Positions 23,600 through 32,635 of a stretch of DNA of 64,000 nucleotides are shown here, piece by piece. The stretch spans positions 64,025 to 128,024 of the forward strand of contig JAFXTH010000005.1 of assembly GCA_017525035.1 (NCBI GenBank). The letters are read 5' to 3'. This stretch comes from Bacilli bacterium. GTDB taxonomy: Bacteria; Bacillota_I; Bacilli_A; RF39; UBA660. Position 1 is the first letter of the stretch, and the number at the start of each line of letters is the position of its first letter. Under the pieces are notes generated by a model that saw only the letters and a program-made list of their open reading frames with translations, searched no databases and had not been told where the DNA came from. The position numbers and the translations under genes were made by a program.

Positions 23600-23621
23600 T
23601 AAAATAAAGAAGGTGTATATA

Positions 23622-24407
23622 ATGAATGAAGAAGAGACATTATATATCAATTCAGATATATTAGATAAATTCATGTCTGGAGTTAATAAATGTTCTTTAA
23701 AGATTGGTGACCATATCGTTTCATCAGAGAAAGACTATAAAAAACTTAAAGAAAATGATTTATATGGTGATGGTTTCAACAAAGTAGAAAAAGGTATGAA
23801 TGAAACTAATCATACAATGATTAACTGTAATAAAGTTAATGAAGAATTTTTAACTAAATATATACTTCTTGAAGAAAAAGGTAAAGAAATAATTGATGAT
23901 TTATATATACCTAATGATCTAAAAACAGGAAATGAGTTTTCTACGTCTTTATTTAATCAAACAAATTTAAATAAAGATGATAGCAATTCTATTAAAACGT
24001 ATATGATGAGTGATAGCAAAACAGAAGATGAATATAACGTTGTAAAAGAAGAAATAGTTAATGATAACAAAAACCTAGATTATGATGTTGAAATAGAAAA
24101 CATAGACGTTAATAAAGAAAATATTAATAATTTAAATAAAGAGATTAGTAGTGAAGCGAAAGCAGATGAAGAAGTCACAGTTAAAGAAGCAAATCTTGAC
24201 TATGTAGAAAATAACAAAGTATTAGATGATAACGTTGTAGAAAATATAAATGTATCTAAAGAAGAACTACATGATGTAGACAACAAGATTGTTATAGATA
24301 ATGAATTTACTACAGAAAATCAAAATATTACTAATGAAGATATTCCTTTAGATGAAATAGAAAAACAGGATGAATCTTTAGAAGCTGAAGAAGTAGAGGA
24401 TGAGTAA
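23622..24407 (+). CDS. Acidic Esx-cluster protein with long disordered tail
   Basis: A 261-residue protein, first gene of a four-gene operon with two WXG100-like proteins. Residues 1 to about 100 look like a helical hairpin of Esx size (ILDKFMSGVNKCSLKIGDH ... KGKEIIDDLYIP) but no WXG is visible. The remaining 160 residues are very rich in Asn, Asp, Glu and Val and are probably disordered. No signal peptide. It could be a secreted substrate or a chaperone of the cluster; function unknown. The start is ATG 22 bases after the -10, behind AAGGTG. Confidence 0.6.
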   Translation: MNEEETLYINSDILDKFMSGVNKCSLKIGDHIVSSEKDYKKLKENDLYGDGFNKVEKGMNETNHTMINCNKVNEEFLTKYILLEEKGKEIIDDLYIPNDLKTGNEFSTSLFNQTNLNKDDSNSIKTYMMSDSKTEDEYNVVKEEIVNDNKNLDYDVEIENIDVNKENINNLNKEISSEAKADEEVTVKEANLDYVENNKVLDDNVVENINVSKEELHDVDNKIVIDNEFTTENQNITNEDIPLDEIEKQDESLEAEEVEDE

Positions 24408-24409
24408 TT

Positions 24410-24715
24410 ATGAAGATAATTGTAACTTATAAAGAATTAGAAAATGTTTCTAATAATGTTAAAGAAAATTCTCACTTAATCGATGATCAATTAGATAAGA
24501 TGACTTTATTAGTAAATGATATGAAGAAAAATTGGCAGGGGGATGCAGCAGATATTTTTTATAATAGTATTGAAGCATATATAGAAAAATTGAGAAAGGT
24601 TCCTATATGCCATAGAAATATTTCAAGTATTATTAATTTCTTAAATAAAAACTACAATTCAATTGATAAAGAATTCGCACAGACACTAAAAAATGCGGTG
24701 GTAAATCATGAGTAA
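24410..24715 (+). CDS. WXG100-family (Esx-like) protein
   Basis: A 101-residue helical protein with W42-Q43-G44 in the middle (KKNWQGDAADIFYNSIEAY), the size and motif position of the WXG100 family. These form four-helix dimers exported by type VII (ESX/Ess) systems. The start follows the previous stop by 2 bases and the end overlaps the next gene by 8 bases, so the partners are made together. Family call is firm; secretion is inferred, since no motor ATPase is in the window. Confidence 0.85.
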   Translation: MKIIVTYKELENVSNNVKENSHLIDDQLDKMTLLVNDMKKNWQGDAADIFYNSIEAYIEKLRKVPICHRNISSIINFLNKNYNSIDKEFAQTLKNAVVNHE

Positions 24716-25055
24716 AATAGTACTAAAAAATGAAAATGAATTTGAAGATTCAATAAAGAAATTAAATAATATTAAGGAAGAAATTGACAAAATACTTGAA
24801 TTGCAAAATAAAGAAATAGATAAAATAAACGATACAAGAGTATGGACAAGTGATGCAGAAAGAGCATTATGTTCAAAGTATAATTCGTTAAAAAATAATT
24901 ATACTGACATTGATGATTCCTTAAATAACTATATAAAGTTTATGGAAACAACTTTAGATAAATATAGAGGAATTGATACACAAAGAAATACTAACATAGA
25001 TGATAATCAAAATGAATTAAATGTTGTAACAAATAATAATATTGAAGAACAATAG
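24708..25055 (+). CDS. WXG100-like protein with WTS turn
   Basis: A 115-residue helical protein with RVWTSDAERALCSKY at residues 45-59: the tryptophan (W46) is in the WXG position but the third residue is Ser rather than Gly, an accepted WXG100 variation. A hydrophilic Asn-rich tail of about 20 residues follows the second helix. It overlaps the preceding WXG gene by 8 bases, the layout of EsxA/EsxB-type heterodimer partners. Confidence 0.75.
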   Translation: MSKIVLKNENEFEDSIKKLNNIKEEIDKILELQNKEIDKINDTRVWTSDAERALCSKYNSLKNNYTDIDDSLNNYIKFMETTLDKYRGIDTQRNTNIDDNQNELNVVTNNNIEEQ

Positions 25056-25066
25056 GCGGTGATTAT

Positions 25067-25978
25067 ATGGCGCTAGAAGACGATGATGAGGATTGGTACT
25101 TTTATCCGTGGCTAGATCCTAAAAATGATGGCAAAAAATTTACAAAAGAAGAAATAATAGCAGCATTTCCTCGTGCTGATGGAATAGGGTATGGAGTTGG
25201 AGAAACAGTTGATGGCGCTATTGAAGAATTAAAAGCACAAGGAAGGTATGAATACTCTGAAAAAGAATACTTAGATATGATCGACGAAAAGCTAGATCAT
25301 GCTAAGACACGAGTATTAGAGCATGAAGTATCTCCATATGATATGGATGGAAAAGTTCTTGATAGATTAGATACCATCAGTGATGATGAACTGGATGAAG
25401 TTATTGAAAATGATTTGATGCCAGTATTTATTAATAAACTTGAAGATATTAGAACATGTTTTGATGAATTTAATTCATTACGAAGAGATTGCCTAGATGT
25501 ATTATGCGGATCATATGCTAGTGTTAACAAAGAAGTGTTTGGAACAGTAAGTGAGGATATGAATGTTCTATACAAGTACATGATGGAATCAACACTTCCT
25601 GCAATTGATAAAATAGTTGAGTTAAAAGAAACTATTGAAGAACTTCACAAAAAGGAAAAAGAACTAGAAGAATTATTACCAAAAATAGAAGAGAAAGAAA
25701 AACATATACCATATAATGATTATGAATATGTAACATCAGAATCTGAATATCAATATAACTGGAATACATTACAGTATGAAAGACTTCCAAATGGTGGAAT
25801 TATTAAAATGTATAAACAAAGTTATTATAAATATTTAGAAGAACTAGATCGTATGAGAAAAGCAGCAGAAGAGTTAAGAGAAGACATTAAAAAAATAAAG
25901 GAAAAAGAAAGAGAAATAATAAAAGATATTAAAAACTTTGAAGAATTAAGATTAGTTTTTACTGATATTGTTGAGTAA
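25067..25978 (+). CDS. Coiled-coil protein of the Esx-like cluster
   Basis: A 303-residue soluble protein, last gene of the operon. An acidic aromatic N-terminus (DDDEDWYFYPWLDP) is followed by a helical middle (about 110-190) and a strongly charged coiled coil (about 195-300, rich in KEKELEELLPK and EELREDIKKIKEKE). No enzymatic motif, signal peptide or membrane segment. Its position after two WXG100-like genes suggests a larger substrate or an adaptor. Start ATG follows GCGGTGAT. Function unknown. Confidence 0.65.
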   Translation: MALEDDDEDWYFYPWLDPKNDGKKFTKEEIIAAFPRADGIGYGVGETVDGAIEELKAQGRYEYSEKEYLDMIDEKLDHAKTRVLEHEVSPYDMDGKVLDRLDTISDDELDEVIENDLMPVFINKLEDIRTCFDEFNSLRRDCLDVLCGSYASVNKEVFGTVSEDMNVLYKYMMESTLPAIDKIVELKETIEELHKKEKELEELLPKIEEKEKHIPYNDYEYVTSESEYQYNWNTLQYERLPNGGIIKMYKQSYYKYLEELDRMRKAAEELREDIKKIKEKEREIIKDIKNFEELRLVFTDIVE

Positions 25979-26726: not shown

Positions 26727-27302
26727 ATGAACAATATAAAAAATATTATATTTGATTTAGGCGGCGTAATACTAAAAGGACAAGCATCATCAGTATTAAA
26801 TAAATTAAATATAAATGAAAATGAATATAAAGAATTATCCAAGTTTTTTGATAACTGGGAAGATTTAGATAAAGGAGAGATTACTCTAGAAGAAAAGTAT
26901 GATATGTGTAATTTCCCAAATGAATTAGATAAATATAAAGATTTTTTAACTAATTATTTTAAAGTAAGAGACATTAATGATGATGTAATTAAATTTATTA
27001 ATGAGTTAAAATCTAAGGGATATAAGATTTATATACTTTCTGATAATAATAAAGAAACAGCAAAGTATATAAGAAGTATTCTTAAAAACATAGATGGTTT
27101 TGTAATATCATGTGATTACCGCGCAATTAAGCATGATGGTAAACTATTCGAAATATTACTTAATGAATATAGTTTAAAGCCAGAAGAATGTTATTTTATA
27201 GATGATCTAGTAGAAAATATTAACATGGCTAAAAGATATAATATTGAAGGTTATTTATTTGATGAAAATAAAGATAACTTAGAACTATATGATAAGTTTT
27301 AA
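26727..27302 (+). CDS. HAD-superfamily hydrolase (YihX-like)
   Basis: A 191-residue phosphatase-like protein. Motif I is FDLGGV, with Gly in place of the second Asp, as in the YihX/epoxide-hydrolase-N branch. Motif II is ILSDNN, the lysine is in KHDGK and motif IV in YFIDDLVENI. Substrates are probably sugar phosphates or other small phosphoesters. It follows the DUF3841 gene by 12 bases. Confidence 0.85.
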   Translation: MNNIKNIIFDLGGVILKGQASSVLNKLNINENEYKELSKFFDNWEDLDKGEITLEEKYDMCNFPNELDKYKDFLTNYFKVRDINDDVIKFINELKSKGYKIYILSDNNKETAKYIRSILKNIDGFVISCDYRAIKHDGKLFEILLNEYSLKPEECYFIDDLVENINMAKRYNIEGYLFDENKDNLELYDKF

Positions 27303-27332
27303 GTAAATTATTAATAAAGGAAGAATGAATTT

Positions 27333-27947
27333 ATGATTAAACATATTGTATTTGATGTTGATAGAACTTTAGTAGATAGTTTTGAGCCAGAATTATTAAG
27401 TTTGCAAGAAGCAATTGAAATAGTGACACAGCAAAAATTAGAAAGAGAAGATTTATCAAAATTGACAACACTACCTACTAGTGAATTTTTTAAACGTTTA
27501 AATCTAAGCGATTTAGAAATTAAACAAATCAATAAAGAATGGGAGATAACATTTTCTAAATATAAAACAGTGTGTTTTAAAAATATTAAAGAACTTATTA
27601 AAGAATTAAATAATAGGGGATATATAATTGATATTATTACATCAAGAACTTTAGAAGAATATCATGAACTTGATAATGAATTAAGTGACATAAGTAATAT
27701 TATCAATACAGTAATAACTTCGGATATAATAAAAAATCCTAAACCAAATAGTGAAAGTATGGATTTATTATGCAGTAGGACTAACTGCTCTAAAGATGAA
27801 ATTATTTATGTAGGTGATAGTAAAATAGATAAAGATTTCTCAATAAGTAGTGGCTGCTTATTTATACCTGCATGTTGGGAGAATAAAGATTTAATGAATG
27901 AAGAAAATGCATGCTTTGATCCAATAGATATATTGAAAAGACTATGA
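27333..27947 (+). CDS. HAD-superfamily hydrolase
   Basis: A 204-residue protein with motif I FDVDRTLVDS, motif II DIITSRT, lysine NPKPNSESM and motif IV YVGDSKIDKDF, the order of a phosphoglycolate phosphatase-like HAD enzyme. Substrate unknown. It sits between another HAD gene and a nucleoside-deoxyribosyltransferase-like gene, all about 20-30 bases apart. Confidence 0.88.
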   Translation: MIKHIVFDVDRTLVDSFEPELLSLQEAIEIVTQQKLEREDLSKLTTLPTSEFFKRLNLSDLEIKQINKEWEITFSKYKTVCFKNIKELIKELNNRGYIIDIITSRTLEEYHELDNELSDISNIINTVITSDIIKNPKPNSESMDLLCSRTNCSKDEIIYVGDSKIDKDFSISSGCLFIPACWENKDLMNEENACFDPIDILKRL

Positions 27948-27966
27948 TAATTAAAAAGGAGATTTT

Positions 27967-28338
27967 ATGAAAAACATCGTATTATGCGGAAGCATGAAAG
28001 TAAAAGACAAAATTATAACTATATCAGAAGAGTTAGAAAAGATGGGATACAAAACTTTATTACCTGTAGAGTGTATGCAAGGAGTTGATAAATTAATTGC
28101 ATCAAGAGCACATCTAGATAGAGTAATTGACCCCAAAAATAAAATAATATTAATAGTAAATGAAACAAAGAATGGTATAGAAAACTATATAGGAGCAAAT
28201 AGTTTTGCAGAAATAGCTTTTGGTTATTATTTTAATAAGAAGGTATATTTATTAAACGATATATATGAACCATACAAAGATGAGTTAATTGGATGGAAAG
28301 TAACACCTTTAAATGGTGATTTAACAAAGATTAAATGA
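27967..28338 (+). CDS. Nucleoside 2-deoxyribosyltransferase-like protein
   Basis: A 123-residue protein with the Rossmann-like start MKNIVLCGSMKVKDKII and the segment NGIENYIGANSFAEIAFGYYFNKKVYLLND, which matches the small nucleoside 2-deoxyribosyltransferase-like family (NDT/DUF4406 type), where the conserved glutamate in NSFAEIAFG is the catalytic nucleophile position. The activity (base exchange or nucleotide N-glycoside hydrolysis) is inferred. AAGGAG precedes the ATG. Confidence 0.65.
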   Translation: MKNIVLCGSMKVKDKIITISEELEKMGYKTLLPVECMQGVDKLIASRAHLDRVIDPKNKIILIVNETKNGIENYIGANSFAEIAFGYYFNKKVYLLNDIYEPYKDELIGWKVTPLNGDLTKIK

Positions 28339-28348
28339 GAGGTAAAAT

Positions 28349-28990
28349 ATGATAAATGATTATGACAAAATTGAAGTTAATACACAAAGTAGTATTAAAT
28401 TTAAACTTGATAAAATAATATATTTTGATCCTTATAAAATAGAAGATAATATAAATGATGCTGATATAATATTTATTACGCACAATCATTACGATCATAT
28501 GGATCCTGAATCAATTAATAAAGTTAAAAATGATAACACAATAATAGTAGCACCAAAAACTATGGAAGATACTATTAGAGAAATTAAATTTAAAGATTAT
28601 ATATTTTTAAATCCAAATGAAGAGATTGATTTAGACGATATAAATATCAAGACAATACCAGCATACAATCTAGAAAAACCATTTCATCCAAGAACAAATA
28701 ATTGGTTAGGTTATATACTTACTTATAATAACGTTACTTATTATGTAGCAGGAGATACAGATAAGACTAATGAAGCAGAAAATATTAAATGTGATATAGC
28801 ACTTATTCCAATCGGTGGTAAATTTACTATGAATGTCGAAGAAGCAAGTGAATTTGTAAAAACAATTAATCCTAAAGTAGTAATTCCTATACACTATGGT
28901 TCAATAATCGGAGATATACAAGATGGGAAAAGATTAAAAGAACTACTATCTAATACATCTATTGAAGTAATAGAAAAACTAAAGTTTTAA
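28349..28990 (+). CDS. MBL-fold metal-dependent hydrolase
   Basis: A 213-residue metallo-beta-lactamase-fold hydrolase with the zinc site THNHYDHMD, a later GDTDKT aspartate and the terminal PIHYGS histidine, the pattern of the UlaG/YtkL-like branch. Substrate unknown. The start follows GAGAGG, 10 bases after the previous gene, so it is part of the same transcript. Confidence 0.88.
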   Translation: MINDYDKIEVNTQSSIKFKLDKIIYFDPYKIEDNINDADIIFITHNHYDHMDPESINKVKNDNTIIVAPKTMEDTIREIKFKDYIFLNPNEEIDLDDINIKTIPAYNLEKPFHPRTNNWLGYILTYNNVTYYVAGDTDKTNEAENIKCDIALIPIGGKFTMNVEEASEFVKTINPKVVIPIHYGSIIGDIQDGKRLKELLSNTSIEVIEKLKF

Positions 28991-29007
28991 TATAAGAGGT
29001 GATCAAC

Positions 29008-29646
29008 ATGCTAAAAAATGCCATAATTTTCGATTTAGATGGAACTTTATGGGATGCCTCAAATCAAACGTATATATCATATAACTATGTCTTGAAAAAG
29101 CATAATATGGAAGAGGTATCCAAACAAAAAGTATGTGATAATTTTGGAAACAATAGAGTACAAGCAGCAGAGCATTTCTTTCCAACTATGCCTTACGAAG
29201 AAGCCGAAAAAATATTAAATGAAGTAGAAATTAATATTTCCGATAATTTAATTAATTGTGGTGGTAAATACATCTACGAAGGAGTAGAAAAAGCGTTAAA
29301 GGAATTATCACAAAAATATGAATTATATATAGTTAGCAATTGTTCACATAGAAGATACATTGAATCATTTGTTAAAGGCGGTAATTTCGAAAATATCTTC
29401 AAAGATTACATCGCAGCATTTGAATTCAAATTGCAAAAATATGAGGCAATACTAAAAATAATCAATGAAAATAACATTGATAATGCAATTTATGTTGGAG
29501 ATACAGAAAATGATAGAATAGCAGCAGAAAAAGCAAACATCCCTTTTGTGCAATGTTTATATGGCTTTGATAAAGACTTAAATTGCAAATATAAAATAAA
29601 TAATATAAATGAATTAAATAATTTAGTAGATGAATTTATATTTTGA
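29008..29646 (+). CDS. HAD-superfamily hydrolase
   Basis: A 212-residue HAD phosphatase with FDLDGTLWD, the motif II region LYIVSNCSHR, lysine in EFKLQKYEA and YVGDTENDRIAA. It resembles phosphoglycolate phosphatase-like enzymes. It is the third HAD gene in 3 kb. ATG 29008 follows AAGAGGTGAT; the in-frame GTG at 28999 is part of that ribosome site. A terminator follows. Confidence 0.88.
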   Translation: MLKNAIIFDLDGTLWDASNQTYISYNYVLKKHNMEEVSKQKVCDNFGNNRVQAAEHFFPTMPYEEAEKILNEVEINISDNLINCGGKYIYEGVEKALKELSQKYELYIVSNCSHRRYIESFVKGGNFENIFKDYIAAFEFKLQKYEAILKIINENNIDNAIYVGDTENDRIAAEKANIPFVQCLYGFDKDLNCKYKINNINELNNLVDEFIF

Positions 29647-29823: not shown

Positions 29824-30171
29824 ATGGCATTAAGTAGACAAGGAATTGCAGCAGTAAGAAGCGGAGCAGGTAAAATTAGCAATTTAGCAACTAAAGTACA
29901 AGGTTCAGGGGAAGAATTAAGTACAATTTTAAGAGGAAATGGAAATTATCAATATTTTAAAATAGGTACTGACAAAGGATCACATGTTGATAGTAAATTA
30001 AATCTAACATTAGATACTTTGTTAGACAGATTAGTTCCTCAATTAAGTAGTATTCATACTACTTTAGAAGGTTTCTGTGCTAGACAAGAAGAAGAAAATA
30101 GAATTCTTGAAATGAGAGCAAGACAGCAAAGAGAACAAGCAAGTCAGCCTCAACAAGCACCTAGTCCATAG
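29824..30171 (+). CDS. Short helical protein with GNGN motif, Esx-like size
   Basis: A 115-residue protein of unknown function with no signal peptide. Two helices flank G38-N39-G40-N41-Y-Q-Y-F and a following GTDKG; the tail is Gln/Pro-rich. The next gene shares the motif (NGNGNFQIF..GTEKG) at the same residue numbers and the LVPQL/LVPQM helix. The motif sits where WXG100 proteins have WXG (W42 in the protein at 24410), so this may be a divergent or analogous hairpin family. TAGGTGAC precedes the ATG. Confidence 0.65.
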   Translation: MALSRQGIAAVRSGAGKISNLATKVQGSGEELSTILRGNGNYQYFKIGTDKGSHVDSKLNLTLDTLLDRLVPQLSSIHTTLEGFCARQEEENRILEMRARQQREQASQPQQAPSP

Positions 30172-30206
30172 TTTAAATATTTTAATAAGATGGGAGGAGA
30201 AGAAAT

Positions 30207-30521
30207 ATGGCAATTGATAGAGAAGGAATTACTTTAGGTAATGAATATGTAGCTCAATTGAGAAAACAAGCAGATGAATTTGCATCACTAAGCAGTGATA
30301 TAATAAGTTTTTTAAATGGAAATGGAAATTTCCAAATTTTTAGAGAAGGTACAGAAAAAGGTGATAGTATTTATAAAAACATTAATACTTGTGTAGATAC
30401 TATTGTGCAACAACTAGTACCACAAATGCAAAAAATAGGAAACACAACAAGCGGATTATTAGATAATCAACAAAATTATAATAAAGCAGATGAAATGATT
30501 GACCGCGAAATGGTTCAATAG
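30207..30521 (+). CDS. Short helical protein with GNGN motif, paralog of preceding gene
   Basis: A 104-residue protein with two predicted helices around G38-N39-G40-N41-F and EGTEKGDSIYKNINTCVDTIVQQLVPQM. It is clearly related to the preceding 115-residue protein, which has the same spacing from the start codon. No WXG, signal peptide or membrane segment. A strong GGGAGGAG precedes the ATG. It may pair with its neighbour as a heterodimer. Confidence 0.65.
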   Translation: MAIDREGITLGNEYVAQLRKQADEFASLSSDIISFLNGNGNFQIFREGTEKGDSIYKNINTCVDTIVQQLVPQMQKIGNTTSGLLDNQQNYNKADEMIDREMVQ

Positions 30522-30535
30522 GAGGAGGATGTAAA

Positions 30536-30895
30536 GTGAGTAATAATACATTTAATGTAACAGAATTTAGAAGTATCTATACAATGATTGAAGACAAAAT
30601 TAACAGTTTATCTTCAAAGTCTAACGAAATAGAATCACTATGTGCAAATTTATCAAGCTTAGTTGATTCAACTGACTCTAATTTATCAACTACTTATGCT
30701 AATCTTTCAAATACCATTTCAGTAGCAAAAAATAAAATTGTTGGTTTCTTAGATGACTTAGAAGCAGAAATGAAACTTTATGAAGCTAAGACAATCGAAA
30801 ATGAAGAACAAACAAATGCTGAGTTAAAAGATATTAATGCAAACATTGACGACATAGCATCTATCTTTAACAGTATAGCAGGAAAGAATGCGTAG
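30536..30895 (+). CDS. Helical-hairpin protein related to the tail of the next gene
   Basis: A 119-residue all-helical protein, Ser/Asn/Thr-rich, starting at GTG 30536 behind GGAGGAGG. From FNVTEFRSIYTMIEDKINSL to DDIASIFNSIAGK it aligns over its whole length with the last 120 residues of the next protein (FNANELTTIVGSLETTKTNL to DEISGLFDSIGN). Size and hydrophilic helical character are Esx-like but no WXG is present. Function unknown. Confidence 0.65.
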   Translation: MSNNTFNVTEFRSIYTMIEDKINSLSSKSNEIESLCANLSSLVDSTDSNLSTTYANLSNTISVAKNKIVGFLDDLEAEMKLYEAKTIENEEQTNAELKDINANIDDIASIFNSIAGKNA

Positions 30896-30905
30896 GTGAT
30901 TATAT

Positions 30906-31910
30906 ATGTCAGAAGCAGAAAGACAATGTAGAATTAATCATATAGACCATCAAACAGTTAAACATGATGATGAACAGGTAATAATGACAGACATTAAGGC
31001 AGATGAAACATATTGGTCTTACAATAATGTTACTGGAGGACATTACGAAACGACAGGATTTAGAAGAGTAAAAAATGAAGATGGCGGTTTTACAGATTAT
31101 TATCCAGATCATATACAAGTATTTAGCGGTAAAGGGTCAAAAGAACCTTCATATGAGCAATATCAATATGTATATGAGCAAAATGGTCAAAAAATTGTAC
31201 GTACGGAAAAACGCGTGTTGTGGAGTACTGGTGATACTAATAAACCTCGTACTACAATAACTTATTCTCAAATGAAAGAAGACGGTACAATCGGTGATAC
31301 TATTAGGACGGATACATATAACGACGATGGTCATCAAATACAATCTACCATTGAACATGGTGGCCTTGGTAATGAAAAAATAACATACAATTATGAATAT
31401 GATGATGAAGGCAAATTAATTCGTGAATTCTACGAGGAAGGCGATGACAAAAACATTGAAATCAATTATGATGAAACTGGTGAAAAAGTTTCAAGTAGAA
31501 CATATGACGCAGAAGGAAATGTTGTAAGATCACAAGTTGCTGAATCCATAACATTTGGTGGTAAAAAATATACTTTCAATGCCAATGAATTAACTACAAT
31601 TGTTGGTTCATTAGAAACAACAAAAACTAACTTATCAACTCAACTTATGGAGATTTCTGCTCAATGTAGTGAAATTGCAAGCCTTGCAAGTTCACATGAT
31701 TCAGGTGTAAGTAGTACTATGAATAATTTAGGAACTACTTGTGAAACTTGTAAGACTTTAATATCTCAGTTAATTGAAACTTTACAAACTGATATTAATA
31801 CTTACGTTGATAACACTATTGCCAATGAATATGATAATTCTAAGGAATTACAACAAATCGATTCTTCATTGGATGAAATTAGTGGTTTATTTGATTCTAT
31901 AGGAAATTAA
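30906..31910 (+). CDS. YD-like repeat protein with C-terminal Esx-like helical domain
   Basis: A 334-residue protein, last in the cluster. Residues about 40-210 hold tyrosine/aspartate-rich beta repeats (ITYNYEYDDEGKLIREFYEEG, TYDAEGNVVRSQ) reminiscent of YD/RHS or MORN-like antecedents. Residues about 213-334 are a helical domain homologous to the whole of the preceding 119-residue protein. In LXG toxins the helical secretion domain is N-terminal; here it is C-terminal. No toxin catalytic motif was recognised and no signal peptide is present. TAGGTGAT precedes the ATG; a terminator follows. Confidence 0.65.
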   Translation: MSEAERQCRINHIDHQTVKHDDEQVIMTDIKADETYWSYNNVTGGHYETTGFRRVKNEDGGFTDYYPDHIQVFSGKGSKEPSYEQYQYVYEQNGQKIVRTEKRVLWSTGDTNKPRTTITYSQMKEDGTIGDTIRTDTYNDDGHQIQSTIEHGGLGNEKITYNYEYDDEGKLIREFYEEGDDKNIEINYDETGEKVSSRTYDAEGNVVRSQVAESITFGGKKYTFNANELTTIVGSLETTKTNLSTQLMEISAQCSEIASLASSHDSGVSSTMNNLGTTCETCKTLISQLIETLQTDINTYVDNTIANEYDNSKELQQIDSSLDEISGLFDSIGN

Positions 31911-31934: not shown

Positions 31935-31957
31935 TGAGGTTATTAACCTCTTTTTTT
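31935..31957 (+). terminator. Rho-independent terminator
   Basis: GAGGTTA and TAACCTC stem with T-run. Confidence 0.85.
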
Positions 31958-32047
31958 ATAAAAAAAATACTTTTATAATAGTATAAAAAACAAACAGAGA
32001 TTAAAAAATATTAACATTTTATATAATATTTGAACGAGGTGAGAATA

Positions 32048-32635
32048 ATGGAGATTATTAAATTTGATTTAGAAGAACTTAAAAATAATCTTAATGGTTT
32101 TTCATGTTACATTTTAGGTAGAAGTTATGATCTAGAAGAAAATGGAGCATCTGAAGACTTTGAAAGGGCATTAGAATATTATAATGAAGGTATGGACCTA
32201 AATTATCCTTTATGTGAGTATTCACTCGGTATTTCGCTTATATTGGGATTAGGTGAAGCATTAAATATTGATAAAGAAAAAGGAACTAAGTTATTAATAG
32301 ATGCTTATCCTAGAATTTTAGATTTAATTAATAATCAAAGTTTATCACCTGAAGAAAGACTATATGCTAGATTTGTAACTGGTGCTTATCATTATTATGG
32401 ATTAGGTAACATAGAAAAAAATGATAAGAAGGCATTTGATATAATCCAACAATGCGCTAATGAAGGGCATATTGCTGCTATATATGACTTGGGAGCAAAC
32501 TTTTATTATAACGGGGTTGGCACTGAACAAGACATTGAGAAAGCCAAGTACTATTTAAAATTAGCATGTGATGCAGGACTTCCAAGAGCAATAAGAAAAT
32601 ACGATGAGTACGGATTTGGTACTAAGAAAATATGA
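32048..32635 (+). CDS. Sel1-repeat protein
   Basis: A 195-residue helical protein with three to four Sel1-like (TPR-type) repeats of about 36 residues: YYNEGMDLNYPLCEYSLGISLILGLG, GAYHYYGLGNIEKNDKKAFDII, and IYDLGANFYYNGVGTEQDIEKAKYYLKLA. Such repeats make protein-binding scaffolds. No signal peptide. The start is ATG 32048 behind GAGGTGAG; TATAAT is present at 32022-32027 without a fitting -35. The partner is unknown. Confidence 0.8.
   Translation: MEIIKFDLEELKNNLNGFSCYILGRSYDLEENGASEDFERALEYYNEGMDLNYPLCEYSLGISLILGLGEALNIDKEKGTKLLIDAYPRILDLINNQSLSPEERLYARFVTGAYHYYGLGNIEKNDKKAFDIIQQCANEGHIAAIYDLGANFYYNGVGTEQDIEKAKYYLKLACDAGLPRAIRKYDEYGFGTKKI

What the first reader, a model, noticed from the sequence alone, without database searches (positions are those of the whole stretch)
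30536..31910. Esx-like domain fused to the C-terminus of a YD-like repeat protein, with a free copy next door
The last 120 residues of the 334-residue protein align with the complete 119-residue neighbour. The head has Tyr/Asp-rich beta repeats (YEYDDEGKLIREF). LXG and related polymorphic toxins put the helical export domain first and the effector last; here the order is reversed. The free copy could be its export partner.
Basis: partly seen in the sequence, partly recalled or inferred. Interest (0 to 1): 0.7.

Follow-up and report, generated by a model that had tools for sequence, protein, structure and literature searches.

The report
Secretion tag on the protein's tail
A small-genome bacterium carries a four-gene operon of type VII secretion helper-like proteins in which one helper is fused to the end of a beta-sheet protein, so the presumed export tag sits at the tail instead of the front; such back-to-front substrates are already known in another form, so this is a new variant and not a new kind of system.

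Summary
Residues 223-333 of the 334-aa protein F (30906-31910) align without gaps to 5-115 of the neighbour c (30536-30895): 33% identity, E 8e-17, far above composition and hydrophobic-pattern shuffles. Relatives carry conserved b-c gene pairs, often as b-c-b-c; in three genomes they sit beside EssC-EsaB genes, which ties b and c to type VII secretion. The window's genome has two EssC loci on other contigs. F is best read as a substrate whose Esx-like hairpin is C-terminal. The likelier partner of that hairpin is a b-type protein, not the free c copy. The head is a predicted single-layer YD/OspA-like beta-sheet with no relative found. Reversed domain order is not new: TslA of Staphylococcus aureus has it (PMC10730906). 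The predicted new class with variable heads is not supported: several hundred genomes gave only this reverse fusion and one forward fusion (G141). No secretion, complex or toxicity was tested. New variant of a known kind; moderate interest.

The parts
29824..30171 (+). b-type Esx-like helical protein 1 (115 aa)
   Evidence: Paralog of 30207-30521 (31% identity, z about 28); no convincing Pfam, NCBIfam or PHROG family
30207..30521 (+). b-type Esx-like helical protein 2 (104 aa), motif GNGNFQxFxxGTxKG at the hairpin turn; YNKAD (a YxxxD motif) at residues 91-95
   Evidence: Predicted helices 5-38, 40-48 and 50-103, mean pLDDT 89.9; motif scan; homologs directly precede c-type genes in relatives
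30536..30895 (+). free c-type Esx-like helical protein (119 aa)
   Evidence: 33% identity to the tail of F over 111 aa; homologs in relatives
30906..31547 (+). head of F, residues 1-214: predicted single-layer antiparallel beta-sheet, YD-like
   Evidence: AlphaFold2 strands from 18 to 211; YD_repeat_2x above cut-off at residues 160-175; Foldseek hits to OspA sheets and to Rhs effectors RhsA and RhsP; no homolog in 376 family genomes
31548..31910 (+). C-terminal c-type Esx-like domain of F, residues 215-334
   Evidence: predicted helices 226-261, 266-306, 311-333 (low confidence)
31936..31950 (+). intrinsic terminator: GAGGTTATTAACCTC followed by a T run
   Evidence: one palindrome, scored on both strands; shuffle mean 0.3

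Best explanation
29824-31910 is a type VII secretion (T7SS) substrate operon placed away from the EssC loci. It encodes two b-type and two c-type helical hairpins of an undescribed Esx-like pair family, and the second c-type hairpin carries an N-terminal beta-sheet passenger. Proposed mechanism: a b-type protein packs against the C-terminal c domain of F to form a helical bundle that serves as a composite export signal; the EssC ATPase recognises it and carries the beta-head out, so F is a reverse substrate, as TslA is. The free c pairs with the other b-type protein. The head is probably a small non-enzymatic binding or surface module. Shown: homology of c and tail, homology of the two b proteins, gene order, EssC in the genome, b-c next to EssC in three relatives. 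Inferred: dimerisation, export, which b pairs with the tail, and what the head does.
For: Tail/c homology. The b-then-c gene order recurs in G141, G152, G158, G210, G419, G357, G344, G018, G302, G391, G303, G434 and G539; b-c-b-c tandems in G152, G391, G434 and G539. b-c genes adjoin EssC with EsaB in G344, G391 and G539, with EssC 37-43% identical to that of the window's genome. Own genome: two full-length EssC, each with an EsaB-like gene and Esx-type genes. All 7 clearly c-positive genomes inside the EssC-surveyed set carry EssC, against 109 of 243 overall (hypergeometric 0.003). b and c distance matrices correlate over 15 pairs (Mantel r 0.82, p 1e-4), though shared ancestry alone could give this. 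b-type predicted as a helical hairpin at pLDDT 90. Precedent for C-terminal T7 targeting domains with helical partners.
Against: No secretion or interaction data. b and c reach no curated family: WXG100 E 0.04 in one of seven c members, ESAT6_2 E 0.004 for the tail with a score far below its cut-off; profile comparison with the genome's WXG100 proteins is inconclusive (6% and 2% probability). No WXG motif in the window's b or c proteins. The reverse fusion is seen in one draft assembly only. F's tail helices are modelled at low confidence from a two-row alignment. Pair assignment within the window is unresolved (r 0.815 against 0.825 when swapped). No EssB/YukC was found in the 88%-complete genome, so the machine may not be a canonical T7SSb.
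Confidence: 0.66

Rival explanations
1. The free c copy is itself the export partner of F: c-type hairpins pair with each other (homotypic, as Firmicute EsxA does) and the two b proteins form a separate dimer.
For: c and tail are paralogs encoded next to each other; sagEsxA-like WXG100 proteins form homodimers (PMC3935865).
Against: In every related locus with a clear c gene, a b gene directly precedes it, including loci with a single b and a single c (G158, G210, G141, G344), so no second c is needed.
Confidence: 0.2
2. F is a polymorphic antibacterial toxin, the head is the toxin domain, and the downstream Sel1-repeat gene (32030-32635) is its immunity protein.
For: TslA and LXG loci have this logic; the Sel1 gene directly follows F and, like F, was found in no other genome of the genus.
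Against: A terminator separates the two genes; the head matches no enzyme or toxin family and is a predicted beta-meander; no head variation could be seen because no relative was found.
Confidence: 0.15
3. The proteins are unrelated to T7SS: generic helical bundle or coiled-coil proteins, perhaps cell-surface or cytoskeletal.
For: Weak hits to coiled-coil and trimeric autotransporter structures; no curated T7SS family reached.
Against: b-c pairs beside EssC-EsaB genes in three genera; enrichment with EssC; paired proteins of about 100 aa without an evident membrane segment (hydropathy maximum 0.65).
Confidence: 0.1
4. F is a chance or recent fusion in one lineage with no export role: a duplicated c gene captured by a beta-repeat gene.
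For: Head and fusion found in one genome only.
Against: Tail and free c are only 33% identical yet both keep most of the family's conserved residues (the S.DS turn, Y and NE), so the tail has probably been under constraint for long.
Confidence: 0.1

Closest known systems
TslA with TlaA1/TlaA2 (Staphylococcus aureus, PMC10730906)
   Same: N-terminal globular domain, C-terminal helical domain, small helical partner genes beside it; the T7SS reads a C-terminal targeting domain.
   Different: TslA has a phospholipase head, a three-helix LXG-like tail, an immunity gene and partner genes at the 3' end; here the head is a beta-sheet, the tail is a paralog of a neighbouring free protein, the partner genes lie upstream and no immunity gene is in the operon.
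LXG effectors with Lap1/Lap2 (DUF3130/DUF3958; PMC9600955)
   Same: Two small helical genes upstream of the substrate; composite helical targeting complex.
   Different: LXG domain is N-terminal; no DUF3130, DUF3958 or LXG match here, and no DxxTxxxGN motif.
WXG100 / EsxA-EsxB
   Same: About 100-aa helical hairpins encoded in pairs, in some genomes next to EssC and EsaB.
   Different: No WXG motif in the window's b or c proteins; family profiles not reached.
G141 protein (L036:2477-3268, minus strand)
   Same: A c-type domain fused to a repeat-containing passenger, with a b-type gene directly upstream.
   Different: Domain order is forward (c domain first) and the passenger is a duplicated DGT/DANGNSY repeat not detectably related to the F head.
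Rhs/YD-repeat proteins
   Same: YD-like strands in the head; Rhs proteins are linked to T7SS loci (PMC11217815).
   Different: Only about 200 residues and one repeat above cut-off, too small for the Rhs shell.

Membership tests
WXG100 (PF06013 / TIGR03930) | Match to the family profile above its cut-off | tested here: not met
   One of seven c members at E 0.04, none of the b members; no cut-off reached
WXG100 (PF06013 / TIGR03930) | WXG motif at the hairpin turn | tested here: not met
   No W in a, b, c or tail; W near the turn only in some relatives (G141, G158, G344, G303)
WXG100 superfamily fold | Helix-turn-helix hairpin, dimer-forming | tested here: inconclusive
   b predicted as a hairpin at pLDDT 90; Esx structures appear among Foldseek hits only at E about 1-3; c tail modelled helical at low confidence; dimerisation not tested
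LXG effector | N-terminal LXG domain | tested here: not met
   No LXG profile match; helical domain is C-terminal
Lap1/Lap2 (DUF3130, DUF3958) | Profile match and DxxTxxxGN / FxxxD motifs | tested here: not met
   No profile match; no DxxTxxxGN, and no C-terminal F/YxxxD/E except YNKAD in 30207-30521
Reverse T7SS substrate (TslA-like architecture) | Globular N-terminal domain plus C-terminal helical targeting domain with adjacent helical partner genes | tested here: met
   architecture only
Reverse T7SS substrate (TslA-like architecture) | EssC-dependent export | not testable with these tools
   EssC is present in the genome; export needs experiments
T7SS-linked gene family | Genetic linkage to EssC | tested here: met
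   Homologous b-c genes beside EssC in G344, G391, G539; not linked in the window itself
YD-repeat / Rhs | Several YD repeats above cut-off | tested here: inconclusive
   One repeat at 17.9 bits against 15.8; RhsA and RhsP among Foldseek hits at E 0.001-0.004 with low TM-scores

The most novel reading that the evidence does not exclude
This clade's type VII system uses a modular Esx hairpin (c-type) as a carrier that can be attached to either end of a passenger (C-terminal in the window, N-terminal in G141), with b-type proteins as dedicated co-export partners, so the machine would be indifferent to the position of the tag and passengers need not be toxins.
Probability: 0.3. Interest if true: 0.6.

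Novelty: new variant of a known kind. Interest (0 to 1): 0.42.

Why it matters
If true, a single Esx hairpin and not only an LXG-like domain can act as a C-terminal export tag, in a bacterium outside the model genera whose genome encodes EssC but no detectable EssB. It also points to an undescribed Esx pair family (b-c) that standard profiles miss, which would help to find substrates in such genomes. The same domain at opposite ends of two passengers offers a direct test of whether the position of the tag matters.

Tried and rejected
Composition as the cause of the similarity: rejected. Separate start for the tail, or two genes read as one: no in-frame start codon near the junction. Relatives of the fusion and of the b pair in GTDB contigs, and of the b pair in viral contigs: none; plasmids (F) and phages (c): none. 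Deciding which b pairs with the tail by co-divergence: unresolved. Common ancestry of b and c with each other or with WXG100 by profile comparison: inconclusive. Homology between the F head and the G141 repeats: none detectable (score 46 against shuffle mean 41). Weak A1/A2 hits in long proteins (E 0.0004-0.01) were treated as coiled-coil noise. Search of solved-structure sequences: nothing convincing.

Full report
Check of the observation. The last 111 residues of F align without gaps with the neighbour at 33% identity, E 8e-17. Score 177 compares with a shuffle mean of 38.8 and a maximum of 71 in 5000 shuffles, or 109 when the hydrophobic pattern is kept, so composition does not explain it. 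The fusion is one uninterrupted frame without an internal start at the junction.

The two genes upstream, 29824-30171 and 30207-30521, are paralogs of each other (31% identity, z about 28) and not detectably related to c (profile comparison probability 1.6%). I call them b-type. The operon is b, b, c, head-c and ends with an intrinsic terminator at 31936-31950.

Relatives. Profile searches over the family and order (243, 386 and 365 genomes, overlapping samples) found c-type genes in roughly 16 genomes, at widely varying strength. Each clear one is directly preceded by a b-type gene: G141, G152, G158, G210, G419, G357, G344, G018, G302, G391, G303, G434 and G539. Tandem b-c-b-c occurs in G152, G391, G434 and G539. 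In G344 and G539 the b-c genes lie in line with EssC and EsaB genes on one strand, and in G391 b-c-b-c lies directly upstream of EssC and EsaB. This is the strongest evidence that the family belongs to type VII secretion. The window's operon has the same make-up as the tandem (two b, two c), with one c carrying a passenger; the 'free copy' is then simply the other c.

The machine in the window's genome. The genome is 1.25 Mb in 24 contigs, 88% complete. It has two EssC genes above the curated cut-off on other contigs, each with an EsaB-like gene and Esx-type genes, and 19 WXG100-like places, of which several are standard pairs upstream of proteins with helical N-termini. EssB/YukC was not found. 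In the same 243 genomes, 109 have EssC above cut-off; all seven clearly c-positive genomes are among them (p 0.003).

The head. AlphaFold2 with a two-row alignment gives about fifteen antiparallel strands, best confidence between residues 81 and 210, then three helices. Overall confidence is low (62.7). Foldseek hits are OspA single-layer sheets and the T6SS Rhs effectors RhsA and RhsP, with low TM-scores. One YD repeat passes its cut-off; repeats are otherwise weak. No enzyme family matches. The head has no relative in 376 family genomes.

Order reversal. In G141 the c domain comes first and is followed by a duplicated DGT-type repeat, not detectably related to the F head. So the same domain occurs at either end of a passenger in two genomes. 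Reversed T7SS substrates were described in 2023: TslA, with a lipase head, an LXG-like C-terminal domain and partners TlaA1 and TlaA2 (PMC10730906), and similar lipases occur at T7SSe and T7SSg loci (PMC11217815). The suggestion that the reversed order would define something new therefore has a precedent.

Mechanism. Most likely a b-type protein pairs with the c-type tail and the complex is exported by EssC, with the head as passenger. Pairing is inferred from gene order and from co-divergence of b and c (r 0.82), which common ancestry could also produce; which b pairs with the tail is unresolved. Export is inferred. The function of the head is the weakest part: a binding or surface module is my preference because no enzyme signature is found, but a toxin cannot be excluded.

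Verdict. Organism identity was not established.

Noticed in passing
window 23613-25978: A second, separate T7SS-type cluster: two WXG100-type proteins (24410, 24708), a low-complexity acidic protein before them and a helical 303-aa protein after them.
   Followed up: partly
L091:2660-5773: In the same genome, a WXG100-type pair is followed by two proteins with helical N-termini and C-terminal alpha/beta-hydrolase (esterase-like) domains: probable forward T7SS substrates.
   Followed up: partly
L039:1096-2007 and L108:5996-6961: In two relatives (G055, G515) Esx-type clusters contain proteins with a helical N-terminus and a C-terminal phage tail lysozyme domain (PF18013).
   Followed up: partly
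window 32030-32635: Sel1-repeat protein just downstream of F, found in no other of the 12 genomes of the genus searched; a possible but unproven immunity gene.
   Followed up: partly
L079:6062-6745 and L078:4902-5291: In G357 the b and c proteins end in the same tail, LGSER, also present on c of G419; in G391 both b proteins end in nearly the same RKAG-QE tail. Possibly a shared C-terminal signal.
   Followed up: no
window 26727-29646: Three HAD-like phosphatase genes and a metallo-beta-lactamase-like gene lie between the two Esx clusters (named from sequence appearance, not searched).
   Followed up: no
G000 contigs C1 and C3 (L046, L047): Two different EssC loci with EsaB-like genes and Esx pairs but no detectable EssB: apparently a pared-down type VII system.
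   Followed up: partly
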